Shown here piece after piece: positions 22,107-22,391 of a stretch of 64,000 nucleotides of DNA; position 1 is the first letter of the stretch; every line of letters starts with the position of its first letter. The stretch lies in assembly GCA_905221615.1 (NCBI GenBank), contig CAJNDT010000331.1:62001-126000 (forward strand), given 5' to 3'. The notes beneath the pieces are model-generated. The model was not told the origin of the DNA. It searched no databases and saw only the letters and a list, made by a program, of their open reading frames with translations. The translations under genes were made by a program, and so were the position numbers. Source of the stretch: Symbiodinium sp. CCMP2592. Taxonomy: Eukaryota > Sar > Dinophyceae > Suessiales > Symbiodiniaceae.

Positions 22107-22391
22107 CTTCTTCACGATGCTCCAGCAGCGAGCCTTCCGGGGCCTGCGCAAAGACCTTGGCAAGCAGACGTGCATGTCCTTACCTTTTTGGTTAGTAGGG
22201 AATGGAGGAATGGGGTACAAGTATAACTACTACTACTACTACTACTACTACTACTACTACTACTACTACTACTACTACTACTACTACTACTACTACTACT
22301 ACTACTACTACTACTACTACTACTACCATTCTTCCATTCCCTACTAACGAAAGGTAAGTTTCGGCTTTGGGCGGTCAGCGCCGGGGAGGGC
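22107..22391 (-). CDS. Two exons flanking a family E introner
   Basis: The upstream exon 22391-22349 (ALPGADRPKPKLTF plus one base) begins CATAG|GCC and ends CCTTTC|GTTAGTAGGG. The downstream exon 22178-22107 begins GGTAAG|GACATG and reads HARLLAKVFAQAPEGSLLEH then REE, to GT donor GAAG|GTGGGG. One leftover base plus two completes an Arg codon, so the frame is continuous. Exon coding LTF is contributed by the element end itself. Family unknown. Confidence 0.7.
22179..22358 (-). mobile_element. Introner-like TIR element, family E, with (TAC)n core
   Basis: CTTACCTTTTTGGTTAGTAG at the left, CTACTAACGAAAGGTAAG at the right; subterminal GAATGGAGGAATGG / CCATTCTTCCATTC arms; the centre is about 100 bp of TAC triplets. 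The proposed intron is 22348-22179 (minus), 170 nt, with TACTAAC 13 nt before the AG. Confidence 0.8.

What the first reader, a model, noticed from the sequence alone, without database searches (positions are those of the whole stretch)
22107..22391. Introner whose inverted repeat encodes both donor and branch point
Family E ends read GTTAGTAGGG; the reverse complement CCCTACTAAC contains TACTAAC, a textbook branch-point word, followed 13 nt later by GGTAAG, which supplies the AG. Because the ends are inverted repeats, the element is splice-ready in both orientations. Here it separates two minus-strand islands whose phases match (LTF | R | HARLLAKVF). A palindromic splicing code within a transposon terminus would be an elegant route to making introns.
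Basis: partly seen in the sequence, partly recalled or inferred. Interest (0 to 1): 0.92.

Follow-up and report, generated by a model that had tools for sequence, protein, structure and literature searches.

The report
Hairpin transposon carrying splice-site-like ends
A short, hairpin-forming mobile DNA element, present three times in this stretch, has ends that look like the tail of an intron on either strand; similar intron-making elements are already known in algae, and nothing here shows that this copy is actually spliced.

Summary
The element is real. 22179-22358 is a 180-nt element with 33-35-nt inverted-repeat ends and an (ACT)33.7 core. A copy at 11977-12068 matches it at 86 of 92 positions end to end and sits inside a third element with the same ends, 11884-12175. 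TACTAAC is in 5 of 6 ends and a terminal AG in 6 of 6, so each end carries a branch-point-plus-acceptor-like module. The GTTAGT "donor" is simply the reverse complement of TACTAAC: donor and branch word are one observation, not two.

The family looks like a MITE with a possible 4-bp target duplication (9/12 flank bases alike). Published Symbiodinium microadriaticum introners have TIRs and 4-bp duplications, carry the 3' splice site and take the 5' site from the duplication (PMC9860276). That model fits the minus strand here (GAAA[element]|GACA, GA-AG|G); I prefer it to the internal donor.

Splicing is unproven: no coding homology was found in the flanks, frame matching is uninformative, and the whole-genome search did not complete (21 requests). 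Most likely a new member of a known kind; modest interest.

The parts
22179..22358 (.). Family E element (180 nt), CTTACC...GGTAAG
   Evidence: 86 of 92 positions identical, end to end, to the copy at 11977-12068 once the ACT array and a 2-nt insertion are gapped; flanks differ
22179..22213 (+). Left inverted-repeat end; on the minus strand it reads ...CCCTACTAACCAAAAAGGTAAG (branch word plus AG)
22326..22358 (+). Right inverted-repeat end CCATTCTTCCATTCCCTACTAACGAAAGGTAAG
22226..22326 (+). ACT array, 33.7 copies, 100% matches: apparently an expansion of the ACTAC core seen in the 92-nt copy
22191..22197 (-). TACTAAC on the minus strand (GTTAGTA on the plus strand)
22342..22348 (+).
22175..22178 (+). 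TGTC, left half of the possible 4-bp target duplication (3/4 match to 22359-22362)
22359..22362 (+). TTTC, right half; on the minus strand GAAA, the GA donor in the target-duplication model (intron 22362 down to 22179, 184 nt)
22107..22391 (-). Possible exon interrupted by the element: begins after TAG|G at 22391, ends before GAAG|GTGGGG at 22107; GC of the 105 flanking nt 0.65 (2.9% of 105-nt windows as high); no homologue found, weak
   Evidence: negative: 29, 44, 59, 68, 72
11977..12068 (.). Family E element, 92-nt copy nested inside another element with the same ends
11884..12175 (.). Outer element with family E ends and a different interior, flanked by TCTT on both sides

Best explanation
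Family E is a non-autonomous inverted-repeat DNA transposon (MITE) of about 90 nt, enlarged to 180 nt at 22179-22358 by a triplet array. Its ends carry, on the outgoing strand, a 3'-splice-site-like module: TACTAAC, then 10-12 nt finishing in GGTAAG at the very end of the element. SHOWN (sequence): copies, fixed ends, inverted repeats, nesting, branch word and AG. INFERRED: movement by a transposase acting in trans with a 4-bp target duplication. INFERRED: where a copy lands in transcribed DNA on a target beginning with G, the spliceosome uses the element's AG and takes the 5' site from the target duplication. Here that would be minus-strand GAAA[element]|GACA, a GA-AG|G intron of 184 nt from 22362 to 22179 that restores the pre-insertion sequence apart from the one base by which the two repeats differ. 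The inverted-repeat ends supply the acceptor in either orientation; the target decides on which strand an intron is possible.
For: 86 of 92 positions identical between two copies with different flanks. Six ends, all CTTACC; 5 of 6 with TACTAAC. Flanking 4-mers match at 9/12 bases; 85 of 20,000 random triples do as well for some length of 2-9 at the true ends, 224 of 20,000 if the boundary may shift by up to 2 nt outward (one search gave 0.0041). An AG end with exact TACTAAC 8-25 nt upstream occurs at 11 of 127,880 positions of both strands, E ends included. The minus strand of this copy reads GA...AG|G, and GC/GT/GA are the listed predominant donors of S. microadriaticum (PMC5177918, table passage). 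PMC9860276 section 7 with the Fig. 2B legend describes S. microadriaticum introners with 4-bp TSDs and TIRs that carry the 3' site and co-opt the 5' site from the TSD. Both strands are predicted to fold into a long hairpin (element given 4 nt short there, no shuffles run).
Against: Only 1 of 6 copy-by-strand combinations gives a GN donor with AG|G, which is unremarkable by chance. The duplication is perfect only in the outer copy (TCTT); the others are 2/4 and 3/4, the three copies include a nested pair, and boundaries 1-2 nt further out give 15/27 over 9 nt, nearly as good a score. No recognised coding sequence beside any copy: Pfam negative at E 0.01 on both strands for 7-27 kb, protein searches negative (39, 42, 59). 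The plus strand of the same flank also reads open (56 codons, GC3 0.70), so even the coding strand is uncertain. The species is inferred, not established.
Confidence: 0.43

Rival explanations
1. An ordinary MITE in non-coding DNA. The TACTAAC and terminal AG are part of the transposase-recognised end and are not used for splicing.
For: No Pfam match at E 0.01 in the 80 kb of strand scanned out of 128 kb, no homologues of the flanks (39, 42, 59), outer and inner copies have no usable GN donor by the duplication model, frame matching uninformative, branch word not enriched in the window. Another palindromic family, with TA at its ends, is spread over the window.
Against: An exact TACTAAC 10-12 nt before a terminal AG is uncommon (11 of 127,880 positions have one at 8-25 nt, E ends included), and elements of this design are published introners in S. 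microadriaticum.
Confidence: 0.41
2. One reading: the inverted repeat supplies donor (GTTAGT) and acceptor; intron 22348 down to 22179 (170 nt), leaving 10 nt of element in the mRNA, in either orientation.
For: GTTAGT fits the recalled consensus GTRAGT at 5 of 6 positions; reader-model splicing leaves two open frames in the possible exon, against one in the duplication model. Aureococcus introners that carry both splice sites and add 12 bp to the message are published (PMC9860276 Fig. 2F legend).
Against: The donor word is the obligatory complement of the branch word. The exonic remnant is 10 nt at five ends and 12 nt at the sixth, so its length is not kept; with a 4-nt duplication it shifts frame against the empty site. 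One of six ends reads GTGAGT.
Confidence: 0.12
3. Amoebophrya-like non-canonical introner, excised with splice points set by hairpin and direct repeats rather than by GT-AG signals.
For: Farhat et al. describe introns with 8-20-nt inverted repeats and 3-5-nt direct repeats at the borders (PMC7789003 passages); the element has long inverted repeats and possible 4-nt direct repeats.
Against: The recognisable TACTAAC-AG module makes such splicing unnecessary; the paper's passages call the Amoebophrya genomes compact, while no domain was found in the parts of this window scanned (species not established here).
Confidence: 0.04

Closest known systems
Symbiodinium microadriaticum introners (Gozashti et al. 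2022, PMC9860276; section 7 with Fig. 2 legend read, other passages seen)
   Same: Terminal inverted repeats, 4-bp target duplication (possible here), element carries a 3' splice site
Amoebophrya introner elements (Farhat et al. 2021, PMC7789003, passages seen)
   Same: Inverted repeats at both ends, short direct repeats, hairpin
   Different: Those introns have variable non-canonical borders; this one has TACTAAC and AG
Internally symmetrical sister stwintrons of Hypoxylaceae (PMC8469720, passages seen)
   Same: Intron-like sequence with long terminal inverted repeats
   Different: Those have 45-55-nt repeats, no flanking duplications, splicing supported by expression data, and work on the coding strand only; the E-in-E nesting here is not a shown stwintron
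TA-flanked palindromic family F1 of the same window (TACTTRRAGGMTCATGGGACTTAGTAAGTA)
   Same: Most ends finish in AAG before the TA, with TACTTAC/TACTAAG upstream and GTAAGT in the mirror end
   Different: TA at its ends (17/22 bases match at that offset over 11 pairs), different sequence

Membership tests
Introner (intron-generating transposable element) | Many similar copies in one genome | tested here: inconclusive
   3 copies in 64 kb; genome-wide count not obtained, 21 unanswered requests (first, last)
Introner (intron-generating transposable element) | Copies coincide with spliced introns (RNA evidence) | not testable with these tools
   no transcripts available
Introner (intron-generating transposable element) | Copies interrupt protein-coding exons | tested here: inconclusive
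   No Pfam or protein homologue in flanks; open frames uninformative
S. microadriaticum-type introner | 4-bp target duplication | tested here: inconclusive
   9/12 bases over 3 copies, one perfect; 85 to 224 of 20,000 random triples as good
S. microadriaticum-type introner | Element carries the 3' splice site at its end | tested here: inconclusive
   The sequence is there: terminal AG in 6/6 ends, TACTAAC in 5/6; use by the spliceosome not shown
S. microadriaticum-type introner | Duplication supplies the 5' splice site | tested here: inconclusive
   GA on the minus strand of 22179-22358; no GN donor at the other two copies
MITE (non-autonomous TIR transposon) | Short, inverted-repeat ends, dispersed copies with the same ends | tested here: met
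MITE (non-autonomous TIR transposon) | Related autonomous element with transposase | not tested
   no genome access

The most novel reading that the evidence does not exclude
The end of family E is a self-complementary two-way splice module: TACTAAC and its mirror GTTAGT act as branch site and donor of one and the same intron, so that the element is spliced in either orientation without any help from its target, and a second family of the genome (F1) has converged on the same TTAGTAAG/CTTACTAA word.
Probability: 0.1. Interest if true: 0.75.

Novelty: new member of a known kind. Interest (0 to 1): 0.35.

Why it matters
If copies of this family are spliced, it adds one more transposon family to those that make introns wholesale, with a clear anatomical reason for working in both orientations: the acceptor module is doubled by the inverted repeat. 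It also sharpens a test: target-supplied donor against element-supplied donor can be told apart by a single junction read (intron starting at 22362 against 22348).

Tried and rejected
Rejected: the phase match as evidence for exons. Rejected: enrichment of branch words in the window. Not relied on: TA as target site of family E; TA matches 6/6 because CTTA/TAAG is itself palindromic. Taken as chance: weak PDB hits to the flanking peptides (best E 0.51, 0.86, 1) and a Pfam hit at E 0.21 for another open stretch. Tried without result: exact scans for E ends and F1 ends (35) in viral contigs, 0 hits in 3 scans, and for E ends and F1 ends (58) in prokaryote genome contigs, 0 hits in 2 scans (the tool says that records of the window's own genome may be left out); three protein searches (39: 2593 candidates, none at E of 10 or less; 42 and 59: no candidate); Rfam, nothing at gathering score; the dinoflagellate spliced leader as recalled, 21-mer with 3 and 15-mer with 2 mismatches absent. 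Seven paper searches were made; I make no claim that this family is unpublished. Huff et al. 2016 and Roy et al. 2023 are not held; nothing of them was seen beyond what other papers say. Also seen in passages only: PMC10666404, PMC11453091, PMC4201569, PMC5177918. Pfam was run on 7-27 kb both strands, 27-47 kb minus, 54-64 kb both; 1-7 kb both, 27-54 kb plus and 47-54 kb minus were not scanned. After the filing check I added, which weakens the target-duplication statistic (0.4% to 1.1%), and lowered confidence slightly.

Full report
What is there. The stretch holds an element of 180 nt, 22179-22358. Its two ends are inverted repeats of 33-35 nt (CTTACCTTTTTGGTTAGTAGGGAATGGAGGAATGG and CCATTCTTCCATTCCCTACTAACGAAAGGTAAG on the plus strand). 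Its middle is an ACT array (22226-22326, 33.7 copies, 100% matches). A longer end with up to 7 mismatches finds 6 ends, that is 3 paired copies: 22179-22358; 11977-12068; and 11884-12175, which contains the second.

Where the element ends. Global alignment of the 92-nt copy with the 180-nt copy on the same strand gives 86 identities and 6 mismatches, the rest being the array and a 2-nt insertion; the likeness runs from CTTACC to GGTAAG and the flanks differ. The outer copy shares ends but not interior. One copy lying inside another suggests insertion of one into the other.

Target duplication. Flanking 4-mers are TCTT/TCTT, ATAA/ACTA and TGTC/TTTC, 9 of 12 bases alike; 4 is the only length that stands out at the true ends. 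Of 20,000 random triples, 85 do as well for some length of 2-9 at the true ends, and 224 if the boundary may lie up to 2 nt further out; at those shifted boundaries a 9-nt comparison scores 15/27, nearly as good. This is suggestive only: three copies, two of them nested. Family F1, a second palindromic family of the window (28 matches to its end with up to 9 mismatches), has TA at its ends instead (17/22 bases over 11 pairs).

The splice words. TACTAAC occurs 8 times in the window on both strands, as expected by chance (9.4), but 5 of the 8 are in E ends and one (42922) lies within an F1 pair. In the E ends the element finishes with AG 10-12 nt after TACTAAC. As sequence, this is a branch-site-and-acceptor module on the outgoing strand of both ends, so present in either orientation. 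The donor is another matter: GTTAGTA is the reverse complement of TACTAAC, so it is there by geometry. Finding both is one observation, not two.

Which donor. In the duplication model it runs from 22362 to 22179 (184 nt), GA...AG|G, and restores the empty site. Gozashti et al. state that S. microadriaticum introners have 4-bp TSDs and TIRs, carry their 3' site and co-opt the 5' site from the TSD (PMC9860276, section 7 read). GC/GT/GA are listed as predominant donors there (PMC5177918, table passage), and a review passage gives 25-74% GC or GA donors in Symbiodiniaceae (PMC11453091). I therefore prefer the duplication model.

Is it in a gene. The flanks (22391-22359 and 22178-22107) are GC-rich (0.65; 2.9% of windows reach it), begin after TAG|G and end before AAG|GTGGGG, and together are near the mean exon length of 109.5 bp given for S. 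microadriaticum. Against this: open frames are the rule in such DNA (1180 of 1337 stretches); all six frames pass the collapsed junction; no Pfam family was found in 7-27 kb on either strand nor in the other parts scanned; protein searches of one plus-strand and one minus-strand reading at this copy, and of the joined flanks of the outer copy, found nothing; PDB matches were at chance level. The plus strand is as open as the minus.

Organism. Not named. Composition (GC 0.49), TTTAGGG-like arrays throughout and no Pfam domain in the parts scanned suggest a eukaryote, perhaps a Symbiodiniaceae dinoflagellate; this is inference. A 12-base match to the spliced-leader 3' part at 49013 (recalled sequence) is weak support, and the longer spliced-leader words are absent.

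Verdict. A MITE family with acceptor-like ends, read either as a further introner-type element of the kind already published in Symbiodinium or as an ordinary MITE; I hold the two nearly equal. The palindromic splicing code is largely a consequence of the inverted repeat. The decisive data (RNA junctions, genome-wide copies) were out of reach: the genome search did not answer in 21 requests.

Noticed in passing
11884-12175: One family E element lies inside another element with the same ends, giving two nested pairs of inverted repeats; if both were spliceable this would be a nested intron.
   Followed up: partly
14228-14341, 17238-17351, 26031-26154, 29202-29325, 37817-37964, 38807-38924, 38988-39101, 42841-42960, 49801-49924, 53006-53129, 58048-58171: Family F1: frequent palindromic element with TA at most of its ends, mirror words GTAAGT and ACTTAC/TACTAAG in many copies, and AAG before the final TA, like the AAG end of family E.
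   Followed up: partly
20937-21042, 26283-26432, 55368-55549: Family F2: palindromic elements with CCCAGAGASYCC near the ends, without evident splice-like words there.
   Followed up: no
49013-49024: Exact TTTTGGCTCAAG, the 3' part of the dinoflagellate spliced leader as recalled; possible relict leader of a retroposed gene, or chance.
   Followed up: no
2251-2645: Tandem array of a unit of about 120 nt that is itself made of inverted repeats (CCGATTGAGTTCAATCGG).
   Followed up: no
12879-13607: Minus-strand open stretches with repeated ACENGGAVDSHSHMIVSGG-like units that look protein-coding; no Pfam match.
   Followed up: no
27662-29053: 463-codon open frame rich in RGGDD-like repeats, partly over a 57-nt tandem array.
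   Followed up: no
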